In this document: positions 32,841-46,514 of the stretch, one piece after another
Numbering within the stretch: the stretch's first letter is position 1
Layout: each line of letters starts with the position of its first letter
Assembly (NCBI GenBank): GCA_910575005.1
Contig: CAJTCL010000022.1
Span: 1-64,000, forward strand
DNA length: 64,000 nt
Direction: 5' to 3'
Origin: Lachnospiraceae bacterium
GTDB taxonomy: Bacteria > Bacillota > Clostridia > Lachnospirales > Lachnospiraceae
Translations under genes and position numbers: made by a program
Notes under the pieces: generated by a model
The model's database searches: none
What the model saw: only the letters and a program-made list of their open reading frames with translations
Told to the model about the DNA's origin: nothing

Positions 32841-34208
32841 CTATAATATCCGCAGCGCCACCACCACTTTCATAAAATTCTTGTTTTCTTTTTTCTCCAC
32901 TTCTGCGGTGATCTCACCCTCCATCTGATGAAGAAGCTGACGGCAGATATATAATCCCAGGCCGCTTCCTGGCTGTCTGGCCACATTGCTTCCTCGAAAA
33001 AAACTGTCAAAGATGTGCAATAGCTCTCTCTGCGGCAGATCACAGCCACTGTTTGTCACAGAAATCAGATACTCCTCTTCCCTGCTAACTTGAATTTCTA
33101 TAGATTCTCCATCCCCATATTTAATGGCATTTTCTACTACATTTTGAAGTACTTCCACCAAACGGTCTGGATCCGCATATACCAGACAATTGGCATAGGC
33201 GCCAATTTGAAAAGAAATCTGGTTTAATCTCATCTTTTCCTGATAATATGCACGAATTTGTTCTAGTACTTCGCCAACATAAATCTCTCTTGCCTGCACT
33301 TGAAAATCAAGAAAATCCTCGCTGGAAGCACAGACAATCTCTGAAATATATTGTTCAATCTCATCCGCCTTGTGATTGATATTTTCTGCTATCTCCTGCT
33401 TTTTTGCCTCATCCTGGTACAGATTGTGATTCAAAGCTCTGGCATAGAGCTTAATGGCACTTAAAGGGGTCTTAATGTCATGAGATAAGGACAGCAAAAG
33501 CAGCTTTTTCTCCTTTTGAAGTGCAAGTTCCCGCTGCTTTTGCTGTTCGAGATTTTCCCGCAGCAAATCCATCCCCCACAAGAATTTGCCAAAAAAATGA
33601 TTTTTTTCTTCCTGGAGTGGAATGGTAAGATTTCCTTTGGAAAGCTCATAGGGAAGGTGTGAAAGCCGATGGAACGGCAGCAAAAGCTTATGCCAGAGAT
33701 ACCACAGCAGCACCACGATACCAAGCAAAAACAGCAAGGCCTCCCCCGCCACCCAGAACAAAAGTCTCTCTTCTGAATCAGAACCATGATAAGTCACTTT
33801 ATAATAATATCTCTCTGTGGCAATCACAACATAGTTTTGGCTATGATTGTTCCAAAAATCTTCTCTATCACCTGTGTCATCCAGGTAATCTGCCCTTGCC
33901 TCTTTCTCTGTAACAGCCTGAGCTTGTGATCTTTCCGCGCTGCCTTCCTGTCTGTCTATCCAAGAAAGACCTGTAATGCCATCATAGGCAGATATCCCTG
34001 CAAATGTTTCCAACTCCTGTAAATCCTTGACTGCCCGACCATTCTCTTTCTCAAATTCTCTGATAGTATATTTCATTCGATTGAGAGAGACCTGATAGAG
34101 TTGGTCTGATTGCCGTCCCTGCCAATTCCAGGCGCACAAGCACAGAACATATGCCAATCCACCAAATAACAACAGCACTTTTACAATCAGCCAACCCATA
34201 TCTTTCAT
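32841..34208 (-). CDS. Orphan sensor histidine kinase (OmpR-partner type)
   Basis: A 455-residue membrane kinase. Membrane segments at about residues 7-27 and 149-172 flank an extracytoplasmic sensor of about 120 residues without a recognised fold; a HAMP-like linker follows. The phospho-acceptor is His243 in LSHDIKTPLSAIKLY, and the ATP-binding domain has NVVENAIKYGDGE and GSGLGLYICRQLL. No response regulator is adjacent. The nearest one (45834-46514) also lacks a kinase, and its gene lies upstream on the same strand about 11.6 kb away. Confidence 0.93.
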   Translation of the reverse strand: MKDMGWLIVKVLLLFGGLAYVLCLCAWNWQGRQSDQLYQVSLNRMKYTIREFEKENGRAVKDLQELETFAGISAYDGITGLSWIDRQEGSAERSQAQAVTEKEARADYLDDTGDREDFWNNHSQNYVVIATERYYYKVTYHGSDSEERLLFWVAGEALLFLLGIVVLLWYLWHKLLLPFHRLSHLPYELSKGNLTIPLQEEKNHFFGKFLWGMDLLRENLEQQKQRELALQKEKKLLLLSLSHDIKTPLSAIKLYARALNHNLYQDEAKKQEIAENINHKADEIEQYISEIVCASSEDFLDFQVQAREIYVGEVLEQIRAYYQEKMRLNQISFQIGAYANCLVYADPDRLVEVLQNVVENAIKYGDGESIEIQVSREEEYLISVTNSGCDLPQRELLHIFDSFFRGSNVARQPGSGLGLYICRQLLHQMEGEITAEVEKKENKNFMKVVVALRIL

Positions 34209-34515: not shown

Positions 34516-34977
34516 TTATTTCATCTCTGCTTTTGTTTTTGGCAGCAAACGATTGTCTTCTGATAATCTTAAAAATGGTGCATATGCCACCTCCCAGGGA
34601 TAGCCGTCTGGATCCAGAAAATATCCCGAATAACCATCACAGCCGCCCCAATCTTTCCATTGTGGTTTCTGCCACACTGTCCCGCCTGCGCGTTCTGCCA
34701 TCGCAAATAATTCATCGACTTCTTCTGCACTTGCTCCATTGATTGCCAGAGTAAAACCACAATATTCTGGCTTTAGACCTACTTTAAGTCTTGCATCATT
34801 TCCTAAAAATTCATAGGGTACTAATCCAAGCACCACATTATCTGTCAGCATATAGGTACAAATCGCTGGATCCGATTCTGGCGAGCACTCCCATCCAAGT
34901 TCCTCATAGAAAGCAATAGACTTTTCCAAATTTTGAACCCCTAAGGTAATGATTGAAATACTTTTTGCTCCTGCCAT
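34516..34977 (-). CDS. VOC-superfamily (glyoxalase/bleomycin-resistance fold) protein
   Basis: A 153-residue protein with the paired beta-alpha-beta-beta-beta pattern of the vicinal-oxygen-chelate fold: ITLGVQNLEKSIAFYEELGW in the first half, and GYSGYFLDPDGYPWEVAYAP in the second with a metal-ligand-like Glu. It follows the TrpA-like gene by 10 bases with AGGAGG, so it is the last gene of the nucleoside operon. VOC proteins include lyases, epimerases, dioxygenases and resistance proteins, so an enzymatic step in this pathway is possible but unproven. Confidence 0.88.
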   Translation of the reverse strand: MAGAKSISIITLGVQNLEKSIAFYEELGWECSPESDPAICTYMLTDNVVLGLVPYEFLGNDARLKVGLKPEYCGFTLAINGASAEEVDELFAMAERAGGTVWQKPQWKDWGGCDGYSGYFLDPDGYPWEVAYAPFLRLSEDNRLLPKTKAEMK

Positions 34978-34987
34978 ATTCTTCCTC

Positions 34988-35707
34988 CTAACACTGTGCT
35001 TTAAATTCCCGAATTTTCTCTTTCATCGCTGGAATATTTTCATGCAGTTTTAAGATTGCGCTTCCGACAAACGCTGCATCGCCCCCAGCCTCTTTTACCA
35101 GTTTTACATCTTCTGGGGCATGAACTCCCACTCCACAGTAAATCGGGCGGTCAATTCCACAATCCCTTAAATGCTCAATACAATCGTTTAAGGTTGGATA
35201 TTTTTCATTCTTTTTTTGCGTCTCATATGGTTTTGCCTGAAAATATACAAATCCATTGGACTGTTTTGCCATCTCAACCTCCGCTTCTGGCATATGGAAC
35301 TGTACATAACAGGACACTCTCAGCCCTGCTGTGATGATTTCATCTTTAATCGTATTATCTTTTAAGCCCACTAACAGAATATCCTTTAACTGATTTTCCA
35401 GACAGAACTTGATAAATTTTTTCGTACCAATTTCTTCTACCGTATTTTCATATGCCAGCACCAGAATTTTTACATCTGGCAATTGATTTTTAATTGCGAC
35501 AATAGATTCCATATACTTTTCATAATCGTCACAACACGCTAACGCTTTTTTCATTCTTTCAGATATGTAGTCACTTTCCAGAAATGGATTTCTGGACGGA
35601 AAATCTACCTCCATCATTTTACATCCCGCATCTGCATACTCCATTGCCATTTTATAACTTGCCTCGATTGTAGGATATCCATTTGATAAATAACAAATAA
35701 TCTCCAT
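34988..35707 (-). CDS. TrpA-like (tryptophan synthase alpha family) TIM-barrel protein without TrpB
   Basis: A 239-residue barrel resembling tryptophan synthase alpha. The start SNGYPTIEASYKMA, the catalytic-loop region AGCKMMEVDFPSRNP (residues 27-41) and the phosphate loop DAAFVGSAILKL match. Aligned to TrpA, Glu33 matches catalytic Glu49, and Glu44 takes the place of Asp60 with identical spacing. It therefore probably keeps acid-base chemistry on a phosphorylated substrate, such as retro-aldol cleavage. There is no trpB or other trp gene nearby. It lies between an iron alcohol dehydrogenase and a VOC gene in a nucleoside operon. Confidence 0.85.
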   Translation of the reverse strand: MEIICYLSNGYPTIEASYKMAMEYADAGCKMMEVDFPSRNPFLESDYISERMKKALACCDDYEKYMESIVAIKNQLPDVKILVLAYENTVEEIGTKKFIKFCLENQLKDILLVGLKDNTIKDEIITAGLRVSCYVQFHMPEAEVEMAKQSNGFVYFQAKPYETQKKNEKYPTLNDCIEHLRDCGIDRPIYCGVGVHAPEDVKLVKEAGGDAAFVGSAILKLHENIPAMKEKIREFKAQC

Positions 35708-35709
35708 CT

Positions 35710-36858
35710 CTATTCTCCTTTATACGCTTTCATAAACAATTGTTTCCATTCTTCCTCGTTTGGAATGATTGGATTGGTCTTTGTACATCCATCCTCCTTG
35801 GCAAGCGCTGCCATCTCATCCAGCTTTGCGACAAATTGTGCTTCCTCTGGTATGATTTCTTTGAGACAGGATGGAATATTTAATGTTTTATTTAATTCTT
35901 CCACCGCTGTATACAAATGTTGCTCCCCTACCTTCTTGGCGAAATCATCATATACTTTTTTCGCTCTTTCATCTGCTTCATTGTAACGAATGACATAGGG
36001 AAGCAGCACTGCATCTGCCAATCCATGAGAAACATGGAAAATACCGCCTAAGGTATGCGCCATAGAATGTACAATTCCAAGGGAAACATTGGTAAACGCC
36101 ATCCCTGCTACCATAGAAGCCTCGAGCATGATCTCTCTTGCCTTACTGTCAGTTCCATTCTGATAGGCTTTGGGAAGCGTTTTCATAATATCAATCGCAG
36201 CCTGTGTTGCCAGGATATCTGATAAATAATTTGCCCGATTGGACGCCAGCGCTTCCAATGCATGGGTCAGGGCATCCATACCTGTTTCTGCTGTAATTTT
36301 GGGCGGCATAGAAACGGTTACTTCTGGATCGCAGATTGCAATATCTGGCATCATTTCCATATTTCCAAGCCCATGTTTCAGTCCTTTTTCATTGTCTGAT
36401 ATTACAATCGAACGAGACACTTCACTTGCAGTTCCGCTTGTAGATGGAATACAACAGAGTCTTGCTTTTGTTCTCAATTTCGGAAATTCATTTGGTGGAA
36501 GTACATCTTCCATCGTTTTTAACTCAGGATGCTCGTAGAAAATCCACATTGCTTTTGCCGCATCCATCGCTGAACCACCGCCAAGCCCTACAATTAAATC
36601 TGGTTCAAAAGTAAGCATTTCCTGTGCTCCTCTGATCACAGTCTCAAAAGACGGATCTGGTTCTACTTTGCTGATAATCATCGTCTTGGCTCCTGTTTCC
36701 TTAAAATAGCCTTCGACTTTCGCAAGCATTCCGCTCCTCTCCATACTCTTTCCACCAACTACAATACTTACTTTCTCTGCTTTTATTGTTTTGATATACG
36801 CAAGGCATCCTTCTCCAAACATTAATTCGGAACCAGCCAGTTTCATTGGTCGCATCAT
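35710..36858 (-). CDS. Iron-dependent (group III) alcohol dehydrogenase
   Basis: A 382-residue NAD(P)-dependent enzyme. The dinucleotide loop is GLGGGSAMDAAKA, then PSTSGTASEVSRS. The metal site is within GIVHSMAHTLGGIFHVSHGLADAV. The length is typical for the family, which interconverts alcohols and aldehydes or lactaldehyde/propanediol. In this operon it could reduce an aldehyde released by sugar-phosphate cleavage and thereby regenerate NAD+. It starts 21 bases after the BtpA-like gene and is followed after two bases by the TrpA-like gene. Confidence 0.93.
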   Translation of the reverse strand: MMRPMKLAGSELMFGEGCLAYIKTIKAEKVSIVVGGKSMERSGMLAKVEGYFKETGAKTMIISKVEPDPSFETVIRGAQEMLTFEPDLIVGLGGGSAMDAAKAMWIFYEHPELKTMEDVLPPNEFPKLRTKARLCCIPSTSGTASEVSRSIVISDNEKGLKHGLGNMEMMPDIAICDPEVTVSMPPKITAETGMDALTHALEALASNRANYLSDILATQAAIDIMKTLPKAYQNGTDSKAREIMLEASMVAGMAFTNVSLGIVHSMAHTLGGIFHVSHGLADAVLLPYVIRYNEADERAKKVYDDFAKKVGEQHLYTAVEELNKTLNIPSCLKEIIPEEAQFVAKLDEMAALAKEDGCTKTNPIIPNEEEWKQLFMKAYKGE

Positions 36859-36879
36859 ATTGCTGTTCTCCCTTCTATT

Positions 36880-37671
36880 TTATATATGTAAATGATCTAA
36901 GACATTTTTTGCTAAGTCATAAGAAATTGGATTGCTGAGTACACCGCCCTCTTTCAAGCTGGAGCCGATAATTGCGCCATCCGCAATCTGCATCTGCTCT
37001 TTGATGTTCTCAGCTTTTACGCCGCTTCCCGCAAATACAGGCACTTTCACCACATTTTTTACTCGTTTAATCAGATCAATTGGCGTTTCCTCGCCAATCT
37101 GTGTCCCTGTCACAATGATTCCATCGGCGCCATTATCCACAGCTTCTTTTGCTGACTGTTCTACCGTAATGTGCGAAATCAGCATATGTGCATGTTTTAC
37201 CTGTACATCGGCAAACACTTTAATCTCTTCTTTTCCCATTGCCTTTCGATATTCCATACATTTTTTTGCACATGGATAGATCACTCCATCTGTAAAAATC
37301 ACAGTGTCTACAAATACTGGAACCCTGATAAATGATGCTCCTGTAATTGCCGCGATTGCAATATTGGCTTCACAATCATTAAATGCCGCATCAACTCCTA
37401 CCGGAATCTGCACTGCTTTTTTTACTGCCATAGTTGCGGCCGTAAGCGCTGCCATCTGCGCTTTGTTCAGCAGCGCGGAAAATGGGGTATCTCCCATATT
37501 TTCCACAATTACTGCATCCACCCCTGCCTTTTGAAGAGTTACAGCATCTTGCACAGCCTGATCTAAAATTTTCTGATAATCCCCATCAAATCCTGCGGTT
37601 GTCGGAAGCGGCAGACAATGTACCATGCCAATTACTGTTTCTGAACCAATTGAAAATACTTCTCTACTCAT
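36880..37671 (-). CDS. BtpA/SgcQ-family TIM-barrel protein
   Basis: A 263-residue barrel of the BtpA/SgcQ family: VIGMVHCLPLPTTAGFDGD near the start, DAVIVENMGDTPF, PVGVDAAFNDCEANIAIAA, and the phosphate-loop-like PVFAGSGVKAENIKE. Named members were linked to photosystem I assembly (BtpA) and a putative sugar operon (SgcQ), but the biochemical activity is not established. The ATG at 37671 overlaps the nucleoside phosphorylase stop by four bases, so tight coupling to nucleoside cleavage is likely. Confidence 0.88.
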   Translation of the reverse strand: MSREVFSIGSETVIGMVHCLPLPTTAGFDGDYQKILDQAVQDAVTLQKAGVDAVIVENMGDTPFSALLNKAQMAALTAATMAVKKAVQIPVGVDAAFNDCEANIAIAAITGASFIRVPVFVDTVIFTDGVIYPCAKKCMEYRKAMGKEEIKVFADVQVKHAHMLISHITVEQSAKEAVDNGADGIIVTGTQIGEETPIDLIKRVKNVVKVPVFAGSGVKAENIKEQMQIADGAIIGSSLKEGGVLSNPISYDLAKNVLDHLHI

Positions 37672-38429
37672 TTTTCTACCTCCATTTTTCTGTGATAATG
37701 ATAAATTCCTTCCAATGCTGCCCTGCAAAGTAAATCTTCAGCATCCATCCGCTTTTGTCCAGTCAATTTTTCCTTTAAATTTTCCAGAACTGTTACCATC
37801 GTAAGAATACAAGTCTTAACCCCCATCAGCCTTCCAAGCGTCAGCATACAGGAGGATTCCATATCAATGCCTGTTACTCCCAGTTTTTTTACCTCTTCAA
37901 ATGTCTTTGACATGTCCCTGCCCCATTCCAAAGAAAACCGAGAGTCATGCATATGGCTGTAAAATCCGTCCATTGTGCAGTTGAGGCCATTGAGATACCG
38001 TTTCCCCATCTGTGTGACAGTTTCATTCATCGCATTGAGAAGATCAATATCCGCCACTGCCGGATAGCTTAAATCGACATAGGACTGACTGGTTCCTTCC
38101 CTTCTCATGGCAGCCGCCGGAATTAAGAAATGTCCCAACATATCATCCTGCATTGACATCACTGTTCCCATTCTCACTGCAACTTCCATGCCGCTTTCAT
38201 ACATTTCCTCCATTGCTATTGCTGCCGAAGGTGCACCGATTCCGGTAGAAGTGACTGTCACATCAACTCCCTTATATGTCCCTGTATAGGTGTTAAACTC
38301 TCTCAAAAACGCCACTTTTTTCGGCTTGTCCAAATACTGTTTTACAAGATCCACTCTCCACGGATCTCCAGAAAACAATACATATTTTGCAACGGTTTCT
38401 TGATCCGCTCCCATATATAATGTGCTCAT
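37668..38429 (-). CDS. Nucleoside phosphorylase (PNP/uridine phosphorylase family)
   Basis: A 253-residue phosphorylase that splits a nucleoside with phosphate into base and (deoxy)ribose 1-phosphate. Family motifs are FSGDPWRVDLVKQ (phosphate site), TSTGIGAPSAAIAMEE, and GIDMESSCMLTLGRLMG, where the Met-Glu pair binds ribose. The start at 38429 (MSTLYMGADQ) has AAGGA upstream. Base specificity cannot be read with confidence; it looks closer to the uridine phosphorylase/hexameric PNP group. It is preceded by the PfkB kinase gene. Confidence 0.92.
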   Translation of the reverse strand: MSTLYMGADQETVAKYVLFSGDPWRVDLVKQYLDKPKKVAFLREFNTYTGTYKGVDVTVTSTGIGAPSAAIAMEEMYESGMEVAVRMGTVMSMQDDMLGHFLIPAAAMRREGTSQSYVDLSYPAVADIDLLNAMNETVTQMGKRYLNGLNCTMDGFYSHMHDSRFSLEWGRDMSKTFEEVKKLGVTGIDMESSCMLTLGRLMGVKTCILTMVTVLENLKEKLTGQKRMDAEDLLCRAALEGIYHYHRKMEVEK

Positions 38430-38467
38430 AAATTTTTTCCTTTCTTCCAATCTCCTAATAGGAAACA

Positions 38468-39406
38468 TTAATCAAATACTTTCACTTTCTCTAACAACTG
38501 TTCTTCAGTTGGTACATTGGTACAGCAGCCTTCCGCCTGAAGAATGAAAGAAGAAAGTGTTCCGCCAAGCTTACAGCATTCCTCCGGCTGATAGCCATGC
38601 AGATAACCATAAATAAATCCTGCCATATATGCGTCTCCAGAACCTGTCGCATCTGCCACATGCTCTACTTTACAGATTCCAATTTTTTCCTTGCGCACCT
38701 TCTCTCCTTCCTTGATATAACAGATGCTCCCTTCTTTCCCAAGTGTATTTACGATGATCTCCACTTCTCCGATTTTAAAAAGTTCTGTAATATCTTTCAG
38801 GGCAAACATTTTCTCAATGATCTTACGCTCCACTTCATTTGTAAAAATAATTTTACTTCCCTGCAAAAGCTGTCTTAAAAATGCTTCTGGAAAAGCGTCA
38901 AAATCATCTTTCATACCAAATACCACTGGTACCTTGTGCTTGCGGCACTTTGCAAAAAATTCCTCATTATCCTGTCTGGATGCAACTGTAATCACCCCCA
39001 GCTTCACATCCTCAAACAGTTCGTCTGCCAACGGCTGTGCATATTTTCCATCCATTGCGCCTGGATAAAAAATAGTGATATGATCATTGTTATTATCCTG
39101 AATCAGATAACATACACTAGTTGCTTCCTCTGGCAATTCTGTAATTCCATCCAATGGAACGCCGCCTTTTTCGAGAAATTTTTTAAATCCATTGCTCTCG
39201 TAATCTCCCCCAACACGAAGTACTGGCTTTGCGCACACCCCCAAGCTGCATAATGCATAAGCAATATTCACCGAACAGCCGCCATAAAAAATCTCTGCAT
39301 TTGAACGGTTCGTAACAATAGAAGTAAACCCAACTTTTGCTGGCGTATCAATTTTAATAATACGATCCATGCTCACATAACCACTTGTCAATACCTCTGT
39401 TTTCAT
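38468..39406 (-). CDS. PfkB-family sugar/nucleoside kinase
   Basis: A 312-residue ribokinase-fold enzyme. The N-terminal substrate motif GGCSVNIAYALCSLG and the C-terminal anion-hole motif DATGSGDAYMAGF with the catalytic Asp are present. Possible substrates are a nucleoside, ribose or ribose 1-phosphate; archaeal pentose-bisphosphate routes use a PfkB kinase on ribose 1-phosphate. The ATG at 39406 has GGAGG six bases before it, overlapping the stop of the hydrolase gene. Its neighbour is the phosphorylase, which would supply a sugar 1-phosphate. Confidence 0.92.
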   Translation of the reverse strand: MKTEVLTSGYVSMDRIIKIDTPAKVGFTSIVTNRSNAEIFYGGCSVNIAYALCSLGVCAKPVLRVGGDYESNGFKKFLEKGGVPLDGITELPEEATSVCYLIQDNNNDHITIFYPGAMDGKYAQPLADELFEDVKLGVITVASRQDNEEFFAKCRKHKVPVVFGMKDDFDAFPEAFLRQLLQGSKIIFTNEVERKIIEKMFALKDITELFKIGEVEIIVNTLGKEGSICYIKEGEKVRKEKIGICKVEHVADATGSGDAYMAGFIYGYLHGYQPEECCKLGGTLSSFILQAEGCCTNVPTEEQLLEKVKVFD

Positions 39407-39416
39407 TGCCTTCCTC

Positions 39417-39983
39417 CTACAACTTTCCTTCATCCAGCATGGTAAACAACGTTTCCATATCAATTACATCACCCAAATATTTGTCAATATCTGTTAAATG
39501 TACCTCATTGACTATCTCTGAGTTTGTCGCCACACATTCTTTGACCACATATGGATTGTAATCCAAATAATATGCATCTGTTACAGTGGCACGAATACAA
39601 CAGTTTGTTTTTGTACCCACAATAATGACATTTTCAACTCCATTTTCACGAAGAACTAAATCCAAATCGGTTGCAAAAAAACCACTGTAGCGCCTTTTTT
39701 GAATCACATAATCTTTCCCTTCATCCACAGGAAGCATCGGATCAATTTCCACGCCGACTGTACCTTCGATACAGTTGGGCCGCATGGCCTGCGCCTTTTT
39801 ATCTGTTTTTCCCTTTCGATTACAGTGCTGCATAAATACAATCAACACCGCTTTCTCTCTGCACCGATCAAGCACTTTTCTGATATAAGGCAAAATTTCT
39901 TTGTTCTGCGGATAATAAACCAGACCCTCAGGATCTGTGAAATCACGAACCATATCCACGATAACCAATGCTGATTTACTCAT
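39417..39983 (-). CDS. Isochorismatase-family cysteine hydrolase (nicotinamidase-like)
   Basis: A 188-residue hydrolase with the Asp-Lys-Cys triad of the family: Asp10 in ALVIVDMVRDF, Lys96 in VIQKRRYSGF, and Cys128/129 in VGTKTNCCIRATV. Family members hydrolyse nicotinamide, peroxyureidoacrylate, N-carbamoyl compounds and similar amides, so an action on the released base is plausible. It sits between the importer genes and the kinase in the same operon with a 13-base gap. Confidence 0.92.
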   Translation of the reverse strand: MSKSALVIVDMVRDFTDPEGLVYYPQNKEILPYIRKVLDRCREKAVLIVFMQHCNRKGKTDKKAQAMRPNCIEGTVGVEIDPMLPVDEGKDYVIQKRRYSGFFATDLDLVLRENGVENVIIVGTKTNCCIRATVTDAYYLDYNPYVVKECVATNSEIVNEVHLTDIDKYLGDVIDMETLFTMLDEGKL

Positions 39984-39996
39984 ATTTCACACTCCT

Positions 39997-40902
39997 TTAA
40001 ATTCCGCGGACTTTACGATTTCTATACTTGACCATGGAAACTACTGTCAGCACAACGCTCATTACCACATATGGGATCACATCAAACACTGCCGCCGCTG
40101 CCCCTGCATACAAACTTAAGTTTACAGACAGCGCTCTTGCCAGACCAAAGACAATGGCGTAAATGCTGCACGATAATGGGTCTCCTCTTCCACAGTAAAT
40201 GGCTGCAATGGCAATAAATCCTCTTCCAGCCGTCATATTATTAGTAAAAATCGTCATTCTCTCTAATGCCAGATTGATTCCTGCCAGGGAGCAGAAAAAT
40301 GCGCCCAAAAGAATTGCAAGATAGCGATATTTGTTTGTATTCAGTCCCAAGCTTTTGGCTGAATCTTCATTTTCTCCCACTACGCGGACATAGACTCCAA
40401 ATTTTGTCCTGTACATCAAAAACCAGATCACAATGACTGCCAAAAAAGAAATATATGTAATCACTGTGTGCCCGCTTAGAATATCCCCTATGAGCGGAAT
40501 ATTTTTTATGAAGGGAAGATCAATTTTAAAATCTGCCGCATTTGTGAAGTCCAATTTTATATTTGCGGAATTCATCAACTGAAGTACAAAGCCCGCAATT
40601 GCTGTAATCGACATGTTAATTGCCAGACCGATTACAATTACATTTCCCTTACAAGTGACCCCAAAAAATGCAAAGATCAAACCAATTACCATACATATCA
40701 AAATTGCAGATAGATAGCCAAGTACGATACTTCCTGTCTGAAAACTGACCAATACAGATACAAACGCCCCTGCAAGCATCATCCCTTCCAGTGCAATATT
40801 CAAAACATTGGCCTTATATGCAAAGATTCCACCCAATACACAAAGTAAAATCGGAACAGCATGATACAAACAGTCGTATAAAATTCCACCGATAAAATCC
40901 AT
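39997..40902 (-). CDS. Nucleoside ABC importer permease, second subunit
   Basis: A 301-residue branched-chain/ribose-type (BPD_transp_2) permease with eight to nine hydrophobic segments and the family stretch NIALEGMMLAGAFVSVL near residue 32. It shares one base with the end of the first permease (TAATG). Together with that permease, the double-domain ATPase and the BMP lipoprotein it forms a complete nucleoside-type importer. Confidence 0.93.
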   Translation of the reverse strand: MDFIGGILYDCLYHAVPILLCVLGGIFAYKANVLNIALEGMMLAGAFVSVLVSFQTGSIVLGYLSAILICMVIGLIFAFFGVTCKGNVIVIGLAINMSITAIAGFVLQLMNSANIKLDFTNAADFKIDLPFIKNIPLIGDILSGHTVITYISFLAVIVIWFLMYRTKFGVYVRVVGENEDSAKSLGLNTNKYRYLAILLGAFFCSLAGINLALERMTIFTNNMTAGRGFIAIAAIYCGRGDPLSCSIYAIVFGLARALSVNLSLYAGAAAAVFDVIPYVVMSVVLTVVSMVKYRNRKVRGI

Positions 40903-41984
40903 TATGCTACCTCCTCTCTGTTTTTGAGTTTCATGATTCTTTCTTTTAAACCAAAATGCTCGTCCAAAAACTGTACTGCCAAAAATAATATAATCAATCC
41001 CTGTAACACTTCTACGATTTCTTTGGGAACAGAGGTATACATATTAATATTATCCGCTCCCGTTTTCAGCGCACTATAGAAAATCGCCGCCAACAAAATT
41101 CCAATCGGATTATGACGTCCAAGCAATGCAATCAGCATTCCATCCCAGCCAAGCCCTGTTGTCCCAGAAAATCCCAGTGTATATTTGAATTTTTCACTCA
41201 TCATATGGCCTGCGCCTGCAATTCCAGCCAAACCGCCGCTGATACACATCAAAATAATAATCTTCCTTCGCACTCGCATTCCTGTAGCTTCCGCAAAATC
41301 TGGATTCTTACCGATGGCTGTAATCTCCATTCCCAGTTTTGTCTTGGTCATTACAAACGTCATCACAATCAAGATTGCAAATGCCAGAAAGAAGAACATG
41401 GTCAGCCGAGAGTTCTCAATTCCCAACCTCTGAAACATCGCGCTTTCATGAATCACTGGCGTACAGACATATCCAGAACCGGCTTCTCGGAATGGACCAG
41501 AAGACAAGTATTCCAACACTTTAATCATTGCGTAGTTCAACATCAATGTAACTACCATTTCATCTACATGAAAATATGCTCTTAAAATTGCTGGTATCAG
41601 AGCAAACAACACCCCACATATCATTCCCACCAACATACAGATCAGTTTTTCTGCAACGGAATTAGATAAATTTAAAGAAGCGCCTGTAATACCTGCAAAA
41701 AATCCTCCCAATAATAGCTGTCCTTCCACACCCATATTAAAGATATTTGCTTTAAATGTGATGGCAATTGCCAGACCTGTCAGCAATAACGGAGATGCAT
41801 AATGCAGCGTATTCAAAAATCCTTTTACTGTAAAAAGAGATTTTCCAAGCATAATCTGATAGGCTTCCAATGGATTTTCTCCGATACAAAGAATAATGAT
41901 TCCACCAATAAAAAATGCCAGTCCGATCGGAAGCAATGTATTGATGATTTTCGGTCCAATATAATTTGATTTCCTCTTTGTCAC
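40902..41984 (-). CDS. Nucleoside ABC importer permease, first subunit
   Basis: A 360-residue permease of the same superfamily as its neighbour, with the signature NMGVEGQLLLGGFFAGITG near residue 82 and about nine hydrophobic segments. It starts with GTG, eight bases after GGAGG, immediately behind the ATPase stop. The two permeases are expected to form a heterodimer. Confidence 0.93.
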   Translation of the reverse strand: MTKRKSNYIGPKIINTLLPIGLAFFIGGIIILCIGENPLEAYQIMLGKSLFTVKGFLNTLHYASPLLLTGLAIAITFKANIFNMGVEGQLLLGGFFAGITGASLNLSNSVAEKLICMLVGMICGVLFALIPAILRAYFHVDEMVVTLMLNYAMIKVLEYLSSGPFREAGSGYVCTPVIHESAMFQRLGIENSRLTMFFFLAFAILIVMTFVMTKTKLGMEITAIGKNPDFAEATGMRVRRKIIILMCISGGLAGIAGAGHMMSEKFKYTLGFSGTTGLGWDGMLIALLGRHNPIGILLAAIFYSALKTGADNINMYTSVPKEIVEVLQGLIILFLAVQFLDEHFGLKERIMKLKNREEVA

Positions 41985-41985
41985 T

Positions 41986-43509
41986 CTAACTTCCTCCTTT
42001 CTGTGCTCCCGCCATCAATAATCCGATTTCTTCTGACGTTGTCACCTGTGGATCCACCTCGCCAATGATCCCGCCTTTATACATAACTGCCACGCGATCA
42101 GAAAGGCTCATAATTTCCGATAATTCACTGGAAATCAGCAAAACTGCTTTTCCGGCATTCCGCAATGCAAGTAACTGCCTGTGAATAAATTCAATCGATC
42201 CAATATCAACACCTCTGGTCGGCTGGCAGGCAATAATCAGATCTGGATTATTTTCAAATTCTCTGGCAATGATAACTTTTTGCGCATTTCCTCCAGAAAG
42301 CTGTGAAATCAGTCCATATTTATCTGACACACGAATATCATATTTTTCTATAAATTCATCACACAACTGCTTCATTTTCTTATGTTTCAACACACCTTTA
42401 GAACAGACTCCATGTGTGTCAAAATATCCTGCAATACAATTTTCTGGAATTGACATATCCCTGCAAAGCCCTTGTGCATAGCGGTCTTCGGGAATGATTC
42501 CGATTCCAAATTTTCTTAATTTGTCAGGCCAGGCATTGGTCACATCTCTTCCATTTAAGGTAATTTTGCCCTTTGTAACTGTCATGACACCTGTCAGTAC
42601 TTTGATCAATTCACTCTGACCATTGCCTTCTACCCCTGCAATTCCCAGAACTTCTCCTTTTTTCACAGACAATGTAACATTGTGTAATATTTCCTGGTTT
42701 GCATCATTTACTGTGCAGACACCTTCCACGCGATAAGCCTCTTCTTCTTTTGGTGCAGGTCCCGCCTCATTGCAAACTGTCAACACAACATCTCTGCCCA
42801 CCATCATCTGTGCAAGTTCCGTCTCATTTGTGTCTTTGGTCTTGACATTTCCGATCACCTGGCCGCTTTTGATCACTGTCACACTGTCACTTAAATACAT
42901 CACTTCTCTTAACTTATGGGTGATCACAATAATCGTTTTGCCCTGATCACGCAAAGCCTTTAGATTTTCCATTAATTGGTCTACTTCCTGAGGTGTGAGA
43001 ACTGCCGTCGGTTCATCTAAAATCAGAATATCTACATTTCGATATAACATTTTCAGAATTTCTACCTGCTGGCAAAGTCCTACCGAAATATTCTGAATCT
43101 TTTCCATCGGATCAATCTGGAAACGATATTCCTCAATCAATTTTTTTACTTTTTCTATTTCTTGTCTTCTGTCAATCAATCCTCTTTTGGTGATCTCACT
43201 GCCAAGTAAAATATTCTCATAAACACTCAGGCTTGGAACCAATTTGAAATGTTGATGTACCATACCGATTCCATGACGGATTGCATCTGTAGGAGAATTC
43301 ATGACAATCTCTTCTCCATTTACCAAAATTTTTCCGCTGGTAGGTTTTAAAACACCATACAACATATTCATCAATGTTGATTTTCCAGCTCCATTTTCAC
43401 CAACAATACACTTGATTTCCTGTTTTTCAATCTGTAAATTGATACTATTATTTGCAATAAAATCACCGAACTTTTTTGTCAAATTTTGGGTTTCTATCAC
43501 AATACTCAT
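41986..43509 (-). CDS. Nucleoside ABC importer ATP-binding protein (double domain)
   Basis: A 507-residue protein from the ATG at 43509, with two fused nucleotide-binding domains as in RbsA/NupO-type importers. Domain one has Walker A GENGAGKSTLMN, signature ISVGLCQQVEIL and Walker B ILILDEPTAVL. Domain two has a degenerate Walker A (GVEGNGQSELIK), a good signature LSGGNAQKVIIARE, and LIIACQPTRGVDIG, where the usual DEPTRG Asp/Glu is replaced. This asymmetry is normal for the family. Confidence 0.94.
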   Translation of the reverse strand: MSIVIETQNLTKKFGDFIANNSINLQIEKQEIKCIVGENGAGKSTLMNMLYGVLKPTSGKILVNGEEIVMNSPTDAIRHGIGMVHQHFKLVPSLSVYENILLGSEITKRGLIDRRQEIEKVKKLIEEYRFQIDPMEKIQNISVGLCQQVEILKMLYRNVDILILDEPTAVLTPQEVDQLMENLKALRDQGKTIIVITHKLREVMYLSDSVTVIKSGQVIGNVKTKDTNETELAQMMVGRDVVLTVCNEAGPAPKEEEAYRVEGVCTVNDANQEILHNVTLSVKKGEVLGIAGVEGNGQSELIKVLTGVMTVTKGKITLNGRDVTNAWPDKLRKFGIGIIPEDRYAQGLCRDMSIPENCIAGYFDTHGVCSKGVLKHKKMKQLCDEFIEKYDIRVSDKYGLISQLSGGNAQKVIIAREFENNPDLIIACQPTRGVDIGSIEFIHRQLLALRNAGKAVLLISSELSEIMSLSDRVAVMYKGGIIGEVDPQVTTSEEIGLLMAGAQKGGS

Positions 43510-43537
43510 ATGCAAATCTCCTATTTTTATATAGACT

Positions 43538-43596
43538 GAGGGCGCCCCAAAGTACTTTTCATGCTTTGTCACACAATTTCTCTTGAGGCGCCCCCA
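43538..43596 (-). other. GC-rich hairpin between the lipoprotein and ATPase genes
   Basis: GGGCGCC and its complement GGCGCCC, extended by one or two pairs each side, enclose a 38-base loop. No T-run follows on the minus strand. Such a hairpin after a binding-protein gene usually protects the upstream mRNA end and lowers expression of the downstream transporter genes. Confidence 0.6.
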
Positions 43597-43648
43597 GAAT
43601 TCACTCGTATAACGAAAATTAAATCCCTGATATTTAATATTTGATGTA

Positions 43649-44827
43649 CTACTTAGTCTTAATCACTACATTCGGGCATTTTGCTTCATCAAATTCTTCA
43701 TTCAACTGCTTATTTGTCACTTTGATTTCTCCATTTGTAATCTGATCACTGATCTTCTTCACTTTTCCCTTGATCTCTTCCCAAACGGCTGTATCTTTCA
43801 CATGTTTTCCCATCTCTGCCAAATCTGTAATTCCTGTTGCTCCCGACGCAAGATTATAGGTCTGCAATCTATCCATTTCTGCAATCTTTCCATCCGCATA
43901 AGACTTTGTGATTACTTTCACAGGAACTCCTGTAATCTTTAAAACACTGGTCAAAACATGCCCTGGCTGCTGTGTATCAAGATTGGCATCTGTCTGAATG
44001 GCAATTTTTCCAAGTTCTTTTGCCTTTGCAGTAATTCCATCTCCGACTACCCCCGCATCTGCAAACACTACATTTGCACCTTCGTCAAAGAAAGTTCCTG
44101 CCACTGTACTTCCTAAAGCAGAATCCGTAAATCCTGCATCATATTTTGCATAATAATCGTATTTTACCCCATATTCTTCCGCAGCCTTGCTAATTCCCTC
44201 TATAAATCCATAAGAATAAACAAGAATACCATTTGAATTTGTTCCGCCGATAAATCCGATTCCTCTTGCAGTATCTAATGGTGTCAGCCCATAGGAGTCA
44301 TCAAATAACTTCTCCATATTTTCATTGATTTGAACCGATAAATATCCAGCAAGATAGGAAGCTTCATGTACATCAAACAAAACAGAAATGACATTCTTAT
44401 GTATCTGTTCCCCACTGTCATCTTTGTTTGGATTATCGTTGAACACTACAAACGTTGTATCAGGATATTGTGATGCAATTGGTTCTGAGCCCCCTACTCC
44501 TTTGATCAATGCATCAAAATCATATTCCAGTGAAAATATAAGATTATATCCATCGTCTGCCAGAGTTTCCAATGCCTCTGGCACACCATTGACCGGTTCA
44601 ATGATTTTATATTCACAGCCAATTTCTTCTGCCGTCTCTTTGATTCCATCACATGCTGACTGATTATATCCATTGTCATTCTGCCCCGATCCAGAACATA
44701 CCACTGCCACTTTCAGATCACTGTTTCCCTTTTTTGCATTTCCCCCTTCTTTTTCCCCACATCCCGTAAAAATGAGTACACTTAATAAAACAAGTGCCAT
44801 CGCAATTGCGCTTGTCCTTTTTTTCAT
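43649..44827 (-). CDS. BMP-family substrate-binding lipoprotein
   Basis: A 392-residue PnrA/BMP-type solute-binding protein, the extracellular receptor of the nucleoside importer. The signal peptide is followed by the lipobox LIFTGC with lipidated Cys23. Mature sequence shows AVVCSGSGQNDNGYNQSACDG, the conserved N-terminal ligand loop, and IGFIGGTNSNGIL and VFADAGVVGDG. Family ligands are purine and pyrimidine nucleosides. It is the second gene after GntR and is separated from the ATPase gene by the stabilising hairpin. Confidence 0.94.
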   Translation of the reverse strand: MKKRTSAIAMALVLLSVLIFTGCGEKEGGNAKKGNSDLKVAVVCSGSGQNDNGYNQSACDGIKETAEEIGCEYKIIEPVNGVPEALETLADDGYNLIFSLEYDFDALIKGVGGSEPIASQYPDTTFVVFNDNPNKDDSGEQIHKNVISVLFDVHEASYLAGYLSVQINENMEKLFDDSYGLTPLDTARGIGFIGGTNSNGILVYSYGFIEGISKAAEEYGVKYDYYAKYDAGFTDSALGSTVAGTFFDEGANVVFADAGVVGDGITAKAKELGKIAIQTDANLDTQQPGHVLTSVLKITGVPVKVITKSYADGKIAEMDRLQTYNLASGATGITDLAEMGKHVKDTAVWEEIKGKVKKISDQITNGEIKVTNKQLNEEFDEAKCPNVVIKTK

Positions 44828-44856
44828 AGCTTAACTTCTCCTTTCGCGTCTGCCGG

Positions 44857-45588
44857 TTATCTTATCTGGTGAATATAAAACTTAAATTTGTCCGTCCTGT
44901 AACAGCATTTAAAATATTCAATTGCCACTTCCTTTCCATTTACAATTCCACATGTCGTACAGCAGAACTGCAGTAATGGTCTTTCTTCCTCTACATCCAG
45001 GTATTCTGCCAACTCATCATGAGCACTGATTGCCTCAATCGTGCGGGTAGCCTTTGTAATTTTCACACCATACTTATCCTCCAGGATTTTATACAATGAA
45101 ACTTGTGAAAAATCATAGAGATCAATTTCTGGAAATAATTTATACGGCAAATACGTTGTCGTATAGTTCAAAGGTTCTTCGTCAGCATAATAAATTCTTG
45201 CTAACTGAAATAATTCTTCATTCTCGTTCAAATTCAGAATATTTCTTTTTTTGACATCTGCCAGTATCACTTTTTTGCTGATCACTTTTCTCTTAGGTGT
45301 ATAACCCAATTTTTCAATATCCTGTGTACAGCTTGTAATTGAAACTAAATTATTTTGTTCTCCATCCCCCTTTACATAGGTACCTTTTCCGTGAACTCGA
45401 TACAGATACCCTTCTTTGACCAAATCATCAATGGCTTTGCGGATTGTGATCCGGCTCACATCGAATAATGCCATCAACTCTCGCTCACTTGGTATTGTTT
45501 CACTCTCCTTATATGTATTATTGTCAATCCCCTTAATAATCTCTTGCTTTACATGATAATATTTTGGAACTTTATATTCCTCTGACAC
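44857..45588 (-). CDS. GntR/HutC-family repressor of the nucleoside operon
   Basis: A 243-residue regulator. The N-terminal winged helix (about residues 8-75) contains ETIPSERELMALFDVSRITIRKAIDD, and a UTRA ligand-binding domain follows (about 90-240). A GTG start at 45588 with AGGAGG seven bases upstream is preferred to an ATG that would place the ribosome binding site inside the ORF. It heads the operon and has ATAACTGG-type sites at its promoter, so feedback control by a nucleoside or sugar phosphate is likely. Confidence 0.92.
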   Translation of the reverse strand: MSEEYKVPKYYHVKQEIIKGIDNNTYKESETIPSERELMALFDVSRITIRKAIDDLVKEGYLYRVHGKGTYVKGDGEQNNLVSITSCTQDIEKLGYTPKRKVISKKVILADVKKRNILNLNENEELFQLARIYYADEEPLNYTTTYLPYKLFPEIDLYDFSQVSLYKILEDKYGVKITKATRTIEAISAHDELAEYLDVEEERPLLQFCCTTCGIVNGKEVAIEYFKCCYRTDKFKFYIHQIR

Positions 45589-45607: not shown

Positions 45608-45685
45608 ACTGGTTATATTCACTTGATAACTGGTTATGATGTCTCTTTATGCTATTATAATATTTTAATACCAGTTATTCGTCAA
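45608..45685 (-). promoter_or_regulatory. GntR promoter with three operator-like sites
   Basis: On the minus strand TTGACG (45685-45680) and TATTAT (45662-45657) are 17 bases apart. ACTGGTTAT occurs at 45608-45616 and 45629-45637; the second is part of ATAACTGGTTAT, a near-palindrome. A reversed copy, ATACCAGTTAT (45668-45678), lies between the two promoter boxes, where bound repressor would block polymerase. Confidence 0.6.
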
Positions 45686-45767: not shown

Positions 45768-45825
45768 ATAAAATAATACCACCAAACAACTGGATATGAT
45801 CAGTTGATTGGTGGTATTATTTTAT
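45768..45825 (-). terminator. Terminator after the response regulator
   Basis: A 16-base perfect outer stem (ATAAAATAATACCACC and its complement) and an inner CAACTG/CAGTTG stem are followed on the minus strand by T-rich sequence. It starts nine bases after the regulator stop, so the regulator is now the end of its operon. Confidence 0.85.
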
Positions 45826-45833
45826 GGTATCAT

Positions 45834-46514
45834 CTATTGATTTACATTTTCTCCGATATAGCGATATCCTACTCCCCAGACAGTCATAATCCGTTCTGGG
45901 TTTTTGGGATCTTTTTCAAGCTTTTCCCGCAGCCATTTGATATGCACCGTCAACGTCTGTGGTTCACTCTCACTGTCAAAACCCCAAATTTTATGAAATA
46001 GTTCCTCTTTTTTTAGAACCTTTCCCTTGTTTTCCATAAAATACAAGAGCAAATCAAATTCCTTTGTTGTCAGCACAATTTCCTGTCCTGCCTCGTACAC
46101 ACGCCGCCCAGCTTTGTCCATTTTAAGCGTTCCATCCACAATTTGATCAGAAAAATACCTGCGCTTCATAATTCCTTTTACTTTTGCCAGCAAAATATCT
46201 ATATCATATGGCTTCTCCATATAATCATCCGCCCCCAGCAGCAATCCATTTAACTTATCTTCTTTGCCGTTTTGGGCGCTCAACATGATAATCGGTGTAT
46301 TATGATGCTCACGGATCTTACTGCAAACGCCAAATCCATCCAAATCTGGGAGCAATAAATCCAAGAGAACCAATTTCGCCCCTTCCGCTTCATAGATCTC
46401 CAAAGCCTCCTCACCAGACAAGGCAAGATAGGTATCATACCCTTCCGACCTCAGAAAATCTGACAGTAACCCTCCAATTTCCTCATTGTCCTCCACCACG
46501 ATAATATCCGCCAT
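45834..46514 (-). CDS. OmpR-family response regulator without adjacent kinase
   Basis: A 226-residue regulator. The receiver domain has the acidic pair in VVEDNEE, phospho-acceptor Asp52 in VLLDLLLPDLDG and the Lys in MEKPYDIDIL. The C-terminal winged helix ends with PQTLTVHIKWLREKLE and WGVGYRYIGEN. It follows an FtsX-type ABC transporter operon (ATPase ending 131 bases upstream) and was probably cotranscribed with it. A cognate kinase normally sits next in this kind of cassette, but here a terminator and the nucleoside operon follow. Confidence 0.95.
   Translation of the reverse strand: MADIIVVEDNEEIGGLLSDFLRSEGYDTYLALSGEEALEIYEAEGAKLVLLDLLLPDLDGFGVCSKIREHHNTPIIMLSAQNGKEDKLNGLLLGADDYMEKPYDIDILLAKVKGIMKRRYFSDQIVDGTLKMDKAGRRVYEAGQEIVLTTKEFDLLLYFMENKGKVLKKEELFHKIWGFDSESEPQTLTVHIKWLREKLEKDPKNPERIMTVWGVGYRYIGENVNQ

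What the first reader, a model, noticed from the sequence alone, without database searches (positions are those of the whole stretch)
34516..45588. Operon for an unrecognised nucleoside-derived catabolic pathway
Twelve co-directional genes with gaps of mostly 0-20 bases encode GntR, a complete BMP-type nucleoside importer, a cysteine hydrolase, a PfkB kinase, a nucleoside phosphorylase, a BtpA/SgcQ barrel, an iron alcohol dehydrogenase, a TrpA-like barrel and a VOC protein. Known family roles suggest import, phosphorolysis to a sugar 1-phosphate, a second phosphorylation, C-C cleavage in a phosphate-binding barrel and reduction of the released aldehyde. The hydrolase could act on the base. DeoC, phosphopentomutase and RbsK-type partners of the standard route are absent. 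I know of no described pathway with this set. The pathway itself is inference.
Basis: partly seen in the sequence, partly recalled or inferred. Interest (0 to 1): 0.78.

Follow-up and report, generated by a model that had tools for sequence, protein, structure and literature searches.

The report
Conserved operon for unusual nucleoside breakdown
A gut bacterium carries a conserved set of eleven genes that most likely imports an unusual RNA building block and breaks down its sugar in a way that resembles a pathway described in salt-loving archaea; if true, this could give an enzyme role to a widespread, poorly understood protein family.

Summary
The genes are as described. All 15 loci found in one search with the TrpA-like protein (51-98% identity; Lachnospiraceae, Clostridium, Youngiibacter, Anaerobacterium, MAGs) carry the same eleven genes; VOC is in 3. 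Here the block separates a response regulator from its kinase, adjacent in 19 of 19 related loci held. The genome has TrpA, DeoB and DeoC elsewhere and no IF-2B/R15P-isomerase-family protein. BtpA proteins fall into two active-site classes: class A goes with PfkB (15/20 vs 2/32 loci) and ureide hydrolases (7/20 vs 0/32), class B with FGGY kinases (reference proteins came partly from these loci). One class A gene run has uridine-phosphorylase-like, PfkB, IF-2B and BtpA genes. Best reading: nucleoside import, phosphorolysis plus kinase to a sugar 1,5-bisphosphate, isomerisation and C-C cleavage by the two barrels, aldehyde reduction by Fe-ADH; the hydrolase acts on an amide/ureide base. The logic matches the archaeal non-carboxylating pentose bisphosphate pathway (PMC9700705), with other enzymes for isomerisation and cleavage. 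All chemistry is inference; the substrate is unknown.

The parts
44857..45588 (-). GntR/HutC-type regulator
   Evidence: in 15 of 15 loci; 43-93% pairwise identity among 11 members
43649..44827 (-). BMP/PnrA-type substrate-binding lipoprotein
   Evidence: nearest solved chains 7x0r (Lbp), BmpA, BmpD and other lipoproteins incl. TmpC 2fqw (nucleoside ligands recalled)
41986..43572 (-). ABC ATPase, two domains
40902..41984 (-). permease 1 (BPD_transp_2)
39997..40902 (-). permease 2 (BPD_transp_2)
39417..39983 (-). isochorismatase-family cysteine hydrolase
   Evidence: RutB 72 of 378 bits; Asp-Lys-Cys triad present and PncA metal motif absent by eye (motifs recalled); highest mean pairwise identity of the 11 genes, 72%
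38468..39406 (-). PfkB-family kinase
   Evidence: (best solved relative 2c49, MJ0406, 114 bits)
37668..38429 (-). uridine-phosphorylase-like nucleoside phosphorylase
   Evidence: G26, R30, R48, R91, T94 kept in 16 of 16; H8 to Y and E196 to D in 16 of 16
36880..37671 (-). BtpA/SgcQ-family barrel, active-site class A (E57, D155, K159, H160)
   Evidence: (241 of 30 bits)
35710..36858 (-). iron-type alcohol dehydrogenase, nearest the ADH domain of AdhE
   Evidence: Asp/His metal ligands invariant (ligands recalled)
34988..35707 (-). TrpA-like barrel, not TrpA
   Evidence: 91-95 bits against cut-off 102; Glu49 kept, Glu at Asp60, phosphate loops kept
34516..34977 (-). VOC-superfamily protein, optional
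   Evidence: in 3 of 15 named loci
45608..45678 (.). repeats ACTGGTTAT x2 and inverted ATAACTGGT/ACCAGTTAT, possible GntR operator
   Evidence: not tested in relatives
45768..45825 (.). 25-nt inverted repeat with 8-nt loop after the response regulator, probable terminator

Best explanation
A self-contained catabolic operon for a ribonucleoside, probably with a non-standard base, apparently inserted here as a block. Shown by sequence: the conserved unit and the enzyme families. Inferred: (1) a BMP-type ABC system imports the nucleoside; (2) the phosphorylase and the PfkB kinase, in either order (nucleoside to sugar 1-phosphate to 1,5-bisphosphate, or nucleoside to 5'-nucleotide to 1,5-bisphosphate), give ribose 1,5-bisphosphate; (3) BtpA (class A) and the TrpA-like barrel isomerise it to the ketose bisphosphate and cleave it by retro-aldol chemistry (TrpA's acid/base positions are kept) into a triose phosphate and a two-carbon aldehyde; (4) Fe-ADH reduces the aldehyde, re-oxidising NADH; (5) the cysteine hydrolase acts on an amide or ureide group of the released or ring-opened base. 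Which barrel does which half of step 3 is not settled: BtpA lies beside IF-2B-type isomerase genes in L088 and L089, which favours BtpA after isomerisation, but this genome has no IF-2B protein, so under this reading one of the two barrels must isomerise. It would be a bacterial counterpart of the archaeal non-carboxylating pentose bisphosphate pathway.
For: All eleven genes in 15 of 15 loci, enzyme order identical; among further neighbours no family is in more than 4 of the 16 loci compared. Pairwise-identity matrices of the genes correlate at 0.65-0.94 over 55 pairs from 11 members. Phosphate-binding residues of uridine phosphorylase kept in 16 of 16 (roles recalled). No IF-2B/MtnA/R15P-isomerase-family protein in the genome. 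Another co-directional run (L088) holds DeoC, two uridine-phosphorylase-like genes, ECF transporter, PfkB, IF-2B (models: ribose 1,5-bisphosphate isomerase 65 of 314 bits, methylthioribose-1-phosphate isomerase 65 of 186), BtpA, SIS and a second PfkB-like gene. Class A BtpA goes with PfkB in 15/20 against 2/32 loci and with ureide hydrolases in 7/20 against 0/32, cassette excluded (with the caveats in the full report). TrpA-like keeps Glu49 and an acid at 60 plus phosphate loops. A distant TrpA-like (32%) lies with two ADP-ribosylglycohydrolase-family genes and an Fe-ADH (L061). The Discussion of PMC9700705 names archaea with phosphorylase and R1P kinase homologues but no R15P isomerase.
Against: The kinase passes no R1P-kinase cut-off (65 of 330 bits) and its nearest solved relative is MJ0406 (a nucleoside kinase, recalled). 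The IF-2B proteins of L088 and L089 also pass no cut-off and fit the methylthioribose isomerase model equally well. No well-matching solved structure of BtpA and no paper on its enzymology in the listings seen (30 of 218 papers; 10 of 889). The distant L061 TrpA-like lacks the acid at position 60. The genome already has DeoB and DeoC, so ordinary nucleosides need no new route. No phosphatase gene is in the operon to remove the second phosphate. Fe-ADH is nearest AdhE, not the archaeal glycolaldehyde reductase (25 of 550 bits).
Confidence: 0.4

Rival explanations
1. Kinase-first ureide-riboside route: the hydrolase trims a ureide base, PfkB makes the 5-phosphate, BtpA acts like TrpF or HisA on a 1-substituted phosphoribose (Amadori-type isomerisation), and the phosphorylase serves a side substrate or the nucleotide.
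For: Class A BtpA loci carry dihydropyrimidinase (L050 498, L089 467 bits, cut-off 393), allantoinase (L092 428, cut-off 358), carbamoyltransferase AllF/G/H (L058: FdrA 529, cut-off 433), carbamoylase (L038, L041: 369 and 384 bits, cut-off 204) and SIS proteins. By eye, without a structure, H18/C19 fall at the end of beta1 and D155 in beta5, where TrpF/HisA keep their catalytic pair (recalled). His8 of uridine phosphorylase is Tyr in 16 of 16.
Against: The cassette has no SIS or ring-opening enzyme but has an aldolase-like barrel and a dehydrogenase that this route does not use. C19 is not general in class A.
Confidence: 0.2
2. Deoxyribose-type route: TrpA-like is an analogue of DeoC, giving glyceraldehyde 3-phosphate and acetaldehyde, which Fe-ADH reduces to ethanol.
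For: Fe-ADH nearest the ADH domain of AdhE; TrpA itself releases glyceraldehyde 3-phosphate (recalled); a DeoC over its cut-off adjoins class A BtpA in L058 and lies in the L088 run, and a DeoC-like ORF lies in the L044 neighbourhood.
Against: The genome has DeoB and DeoC already; a kinase is not needed; Glu198, which contacts the 2'/3'-hydroxyls in uridine phosphorylase (recalled), is kept in 16 of 16.
Confidence: 0.15
3. Plain nucleoside salvage (phosphorylase and kinase) with barrels and dehydrogenase serving other ends.
For: Each family alone is common (families).
Against: Same six enzyme genes in the same order in 15 of 15 loci, while no other neighbour family is in more than 4 of 16.
Confidence: 0.08

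Closest known systems
Non-carboxylating pentose bisphosphate pathway of halophilic archaea (PMC9700705)
   Same: Phosphorylase resembling uridine phosphorylases, sugar kinase, aldehyde reductase (only a weak sequence match to ours, 25 bits); logic phosphorolysis, second phosphorylation, cleavage, aldehyde reduction
   Different: No IF-2B-family R15P isomerase in this genome; no HAD phosphatase or FucA aldolase in the operon; BtpA and TrpA-like barrels instead; dedicated BMP importer and cysteine hydrolase
Carboxylating pentose bisphosphate pathway of Thermococcales (PMC12628685, passages only)
   Same: Nucleoside sugar through 1,5-bisphosphates
   Different: RuBisCO route; no RuBisCO in the operon
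deo route (DeoA/DeoD, DeoB, DeoC)
   Same: Phosphorolysis; retro-aldol cleavage (inferred here)
   Different: No mutase or DeoC in the operon; kinase instead; DeoB and DeoC are elsewhere in this genome
E. coli sgc operon
   Same: BtpA-family SgcQ in a putative sugar operon
   Different: SgcQ is active-site class B (S57, N155, E159), with PTS and epimerase genes

Membership tests
Non-carboxylating pentose bisphosphate pathway | Nucleoside phosphorylase of the PNP_UDP_1 family | tested here: met
   PF01048 115 bits of 25; phosphate residues kept in 16 of 16
Non-carboxylating pentose bisphosphate pathway | Ribose-1-phosphate kinase (PfkB) | tested here: inconclusive
   PfkB, but 65 of 330 bits for the halophilic model and 49 of 500 for the Thermococcales one
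Non-carboxylating pentose bisphosphate pathway | R15P isomerase of the IF-2B family | tested here: not met
   PF01008: no match in the genome (99.45% complete) at E 0.001
Non-carboxylating pentose bisphosphate pathway | RuBP phosphatase (HAD) and FucA-type aldolase | tested here: not met
   Neither family among the operon proteins scanned; the rest of the genome was not searched for them
Non-carboxylating pentose bisphosphate pathway | Glycolaldehyde reductase | tested here: inconclusive
   An Fe-ADH is present, but 25 of 550 bits for the halophilic model; substrate untested
Tryptophan synthase alpha (TrpA) | Passes TIGR00262 cut-off | tested here: not met
   91-95 bits of 102; the genome's own TrpA scores 240
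Tryptophan synthase alpha (TrpA) | Catalytic Glu49 and acid at 60 | tested here: met
   Glu in 15 of 15 at both; Glu at 60 also in 6 of 6 relatives' TrpA aligned
BtpA/SgcQ family | PF03437 and TIGR00259 cut-offs | tested here: met
   241 of 30 and 227 of 153 bits
RutB ureidoacrylate hydrolase | TIGR03614 cut-off | tested here: not met
   72 of 378 bits
Uridine phosphorylase | TIGR01718 cut-off | tested here: not met
   168 of 280 bits; Gln166 and Arg168 both kept in 4 of 16 members (L010, L012, L013, L014, gap placement uncertain)

The most novel reading that the evidence does not exclude
A bacterial non-carboxylating pentose bisphosphate pathway built on two ribulose-phosphate-type barrels of unknown function, BtpA class A and a TrpA paralogue, dedicated to ureide-type nucleosides such as dihydrouridine from RNA turnover; class A BtpA proteins in bacteria and haloarchaea would be enzymes of phosphorylated nucleoside sugars, filling the isomerase or cleavage gap noted for some archaea.
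Probability: 0.2. Interest if true: 0.78.

Novelty: new variant of a known kind. Interest (0 to 1): 0.6.

Why it matters
BtpA/SgcQ proteins occur in bacteria, cyanobacteria and archaea (control hits: E. coli, Synechococcus, Methanocaldococcus), and no paper on an assayed member appeared in the listings seen. The class A/kinase/ureide association gives a concrete, testable role. A TrpA paralogue turned into a catabolic aldolase would be a clear case of enzyme recruitment. For gut ecology it suggests that some Lachnospiraceae feed on modified nucleosides.

Tried and rejected
Nicotinamide riboside as substrate: not preferred, because the hydrolase lacks the nicotinamidase metal motif by eye (motif recalled) and scores 38 of 174 bits for the PncA-type model. 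Queuosine and pseudouridine salvage: considered from recall; no matching lyase or PsuG among the operon families. 5'-deoxynucleoside (MTA/5dAdo) shunt: does not explain the kinase; no MtnA-family protein in the genome. An early reading of mine, that the uracil-binding Gln166/Arg168 of uridine phosphorylase are lost, was alignment-dependent; realigned both are kept in 4 of 16 and position 168 is Arg in 5 and His in 11, so a uracil-like base stays possible. The idea that Lys158 of the TrpA-like barrel is a Schiff-base lysine is weakened: invariant in 15 of 15 cassette members but Leu in L061. The shift from Asp60 to Glu is not special: 6 of 6 relatives' true TrpAs have Glu too. Searches for closer phosphorylase or hydrolase relatives outside the cassette gave only 35-42% identity (matches under the set E-values in 8 and 17 of 248 other genomes). 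Literature: searches show only ranked listings (titles and abstract starts; up to 30 rows of up to 1,948 hits); no title in them describes this gene set or BtpA/SgcQ enzymology. Opened: PMC9700705 (outline, abstract, passages, Discussion) and PMC12628685 (passages).
Full report
OBSERVATION. The twelve genes are present at 34516-45588, all on the minus strand. Likely starts were refined from ribosome-binding sites and family alignments. ARAGORN finds no tRNA gene in the window. The nearest named relative is a Lachnospiraceae isolate contig (L002), 98-100% identical over the operon proteins.

CO-CONSERVATION. One scan of a genome collection with the TrpA-like protein gave 15 loci, 51-98% identical. 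All 15 have the other ten core genes; Iso-PfkB-Udp-BtpA-FeADH-TrpA-like has the same order in 15 of 15, GntR sits downstream in L003 and L004, VOC is in L002, L004 and L005 only. The sample is conditional on the TrpA-like gene, and several loci are MAGs. Among other neighbours, no family is in more than 4 of the 16 loci compared. Pairwise-identity matrices for 11 members (55 pairs) correlate between genes at 0.65-0.94, as expected of a block inherited together; shared ancestry alone also raises such values. The unit is uncommon: in 150 genomes of the family (own included) 6 have the TrpA-like protein at 72% identity or more and one a 32% relative, while 19 of 150 have some BtpA; in 249 genomes of the phylum no other genome has the phosphorylase above 42% identity. 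L004 has a fructose-6-phosphate aldolase gene (TIGR00875 315 of 246 bits) directly after TrpA-like.

INSERTION. Here the operon lies between a response regulator (45834-46514) and a histidine kinase (32841-34208). The kinase search gave 33 matches in other genomes; 19 were held as loci (L094-L112), and in 19 of 19 the regulator lies directly upstream of the kinase, alignments 12-374 bases apart; in L094, same genus, ABC, regulator, kinase and PdxS are in a row (junction sequences). The simplest reading is that the block was inserted here as a unit. Among ORFs of 80 aa or more between the flanks no mobile-element gene was recognised.

THE ENZYMES. Phosphorylase: phosphate-binding residues of E. 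coli Udp are kept in 16 of 16 members, His8 is Tyr and Glu196 is Asp in 16 of 16, Met197 and Glu198 are kept; position 166 is Gln in 6 of 16 and position 168 is Arg in 5, His in 11 (residue roles recalled). Kinase: PfkB, best solved relative MJ0406, below the cut-offs of the 22 NCBIfam models it matches. BtpA: far above family cut-offs; only weak hits among solved structures. Fe-ADH: nearest the ADH half of AdhE. TrpA-like: below the TrpA cut-off, while the genome's true TrpA is on another contig; Glu49, an acid at 60 and both phosphate loops kept. Cysteine hydrolase: isochorismatase family, weakly RutB-like. DeoB and DeoC are elsewhere in the genome, so ordinary nucleosides already have a route; a relative of dihydropyrimidinase is there too, below cut-off (219 of 393). 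No IF-2B protein is found.

BTPA CLASSES. I compared 52 loci with a BtpA gene outside the cassette: 9 plasmid records picked by hand from 30 shown of 191, 19 phylum-sample loci covering 20 of the 22 other places and 24 family-sample loci covering the 25 non-cassette places. Residue 57 splits them: Glu/Gln (class A, 20) or other (class B, 32). Within 8 kb, by BLAST to reference proteins: PfkB 15/20 vs 2/32, FGGY 0/20 vs 17/32, SIS 7/20 vs 1/32, ureide hydrolase or carbamoyltransferase 7/20 vs 0/32, BMP-type importer 3/20 vs 0/32 (Fisher p 3.6e-7, 3.5e-5, 0.0035, 0.00058, 0.052). Caveats: the references were taken from some of these same loci (five of the seven ureide-positive loci supplied one; FGGY references came from class B loci), class B neighbours were mostly not profile-searched for ureide enzymes, the classes were chosen after part of the data had been seen, and the p-values ignore shared ancestry. 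Six of the seven ureide loci are backed by a profile score over its cut-off (L038, L041, L050, L058, L089, L092); L044 rests on BLAST (59%). Five of 20 class A loci show no PfkB. Examples: L050 GntR-PfkB-SIS-BtpA-BMP importer-dihydropyrimidinase; L058 ECF-PfkB-SIS-BtpA-DeoC-SDR-AllF-AllG-M42-AllH; L089 PTS-IF-2B-BtpA-dihydropyrimidinase; L092 allantoinase-BtpA-PfkB-SIS-ECF; L088 with DeoC, two uridine-phosphorylase-like genes, PfkB, IF-2B, BtpA, SIS and a second PfkB-like gene. The IF-2B proteins fit the R15P isomerase and methylthioribose-1-phosphate isomerase models equally, below both cut-offs.

MECHANISM. Phosphorylase plus kinase lead to the same sugar 1,5-bisphosphate whichever acts first. 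A pathway of this logic is described in halophilic archaea (PMC9700705: guanosine phosphorylase, R1P kinase, R15P isomerase, RuBP phosphatase, Ru1P aldolase, glycolaldehyde reductase). Its Discussion says that ten halophiles and Pyrobaculum calidifontis have phosphorylase and R1P kinase homologues without R15P isomerase, and that more variants may exist. The cassette would be such a variant in bacteria, with BtpA and TrpA-like as isomerase and cleaving enzyme. The assignment of the two barrels is open. The base is unknown; the ureide theme of class A operons and the partly kept uracil contacts make a uracil-like or reduced pyrimidine base plausible, no more.

VERDICT. Real and strongly conserved where its TrpA-like gene occurs; no description of it appeared in the literature listings seen; the mechanism is plausible but untested.

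Noticed in passing
32841-34208 and 45834-46514: The operon splits a response regulator from its histidine kinase; in 19 of 19 related loci held they are adjacent, so the block was probably inserted here.
   Followed up: yes
L088 (whole): Co-directional run of DeoC, two uridine-phosphorylase-like genes, PfkB, a second PfkB-like gene, an IF-2B-type isomerase, BtpA and SIS with an ECF transporter: a candidate second bisphosphate pathway.
   Followed up: partly
L058:4579-16001: Oxamate carbamoyltransferase subunits AllF, AllG, AllH in one run with PfkB-SIS-BtpA-DeoC-SDR.
   Followed up: partly
L050:4659-14733: BMP-type importer operon with PfkB, SIS, BtpA and dihydropyrimidinase, no phosphorylase recognised.
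   Followed up: partly
L061:4056-10013: Distant TrpA-like protein (32%) with two ADP-ribosylglycohydrolase-family genes, Fe-ADH and a sorbose-type PTS.
   Followed up: partly
L080:6141-10228: Ribokinase-like, xylose-isomerase-like barrel, BtpA and an IMP dehydrogenase gene in one run.
   Followed up: no
L004:10740-11390: Fructose-6-phosphate aldolase gene directly after TrpA-like in one cassette.
   Followed up: partly
L035:8019-10539: Haloferax BtpA next to a PfkB kinase (best model: ATP-dependent R1P kinase, 104 of 330 bits) and a VOC gene.
   Followed up: partly
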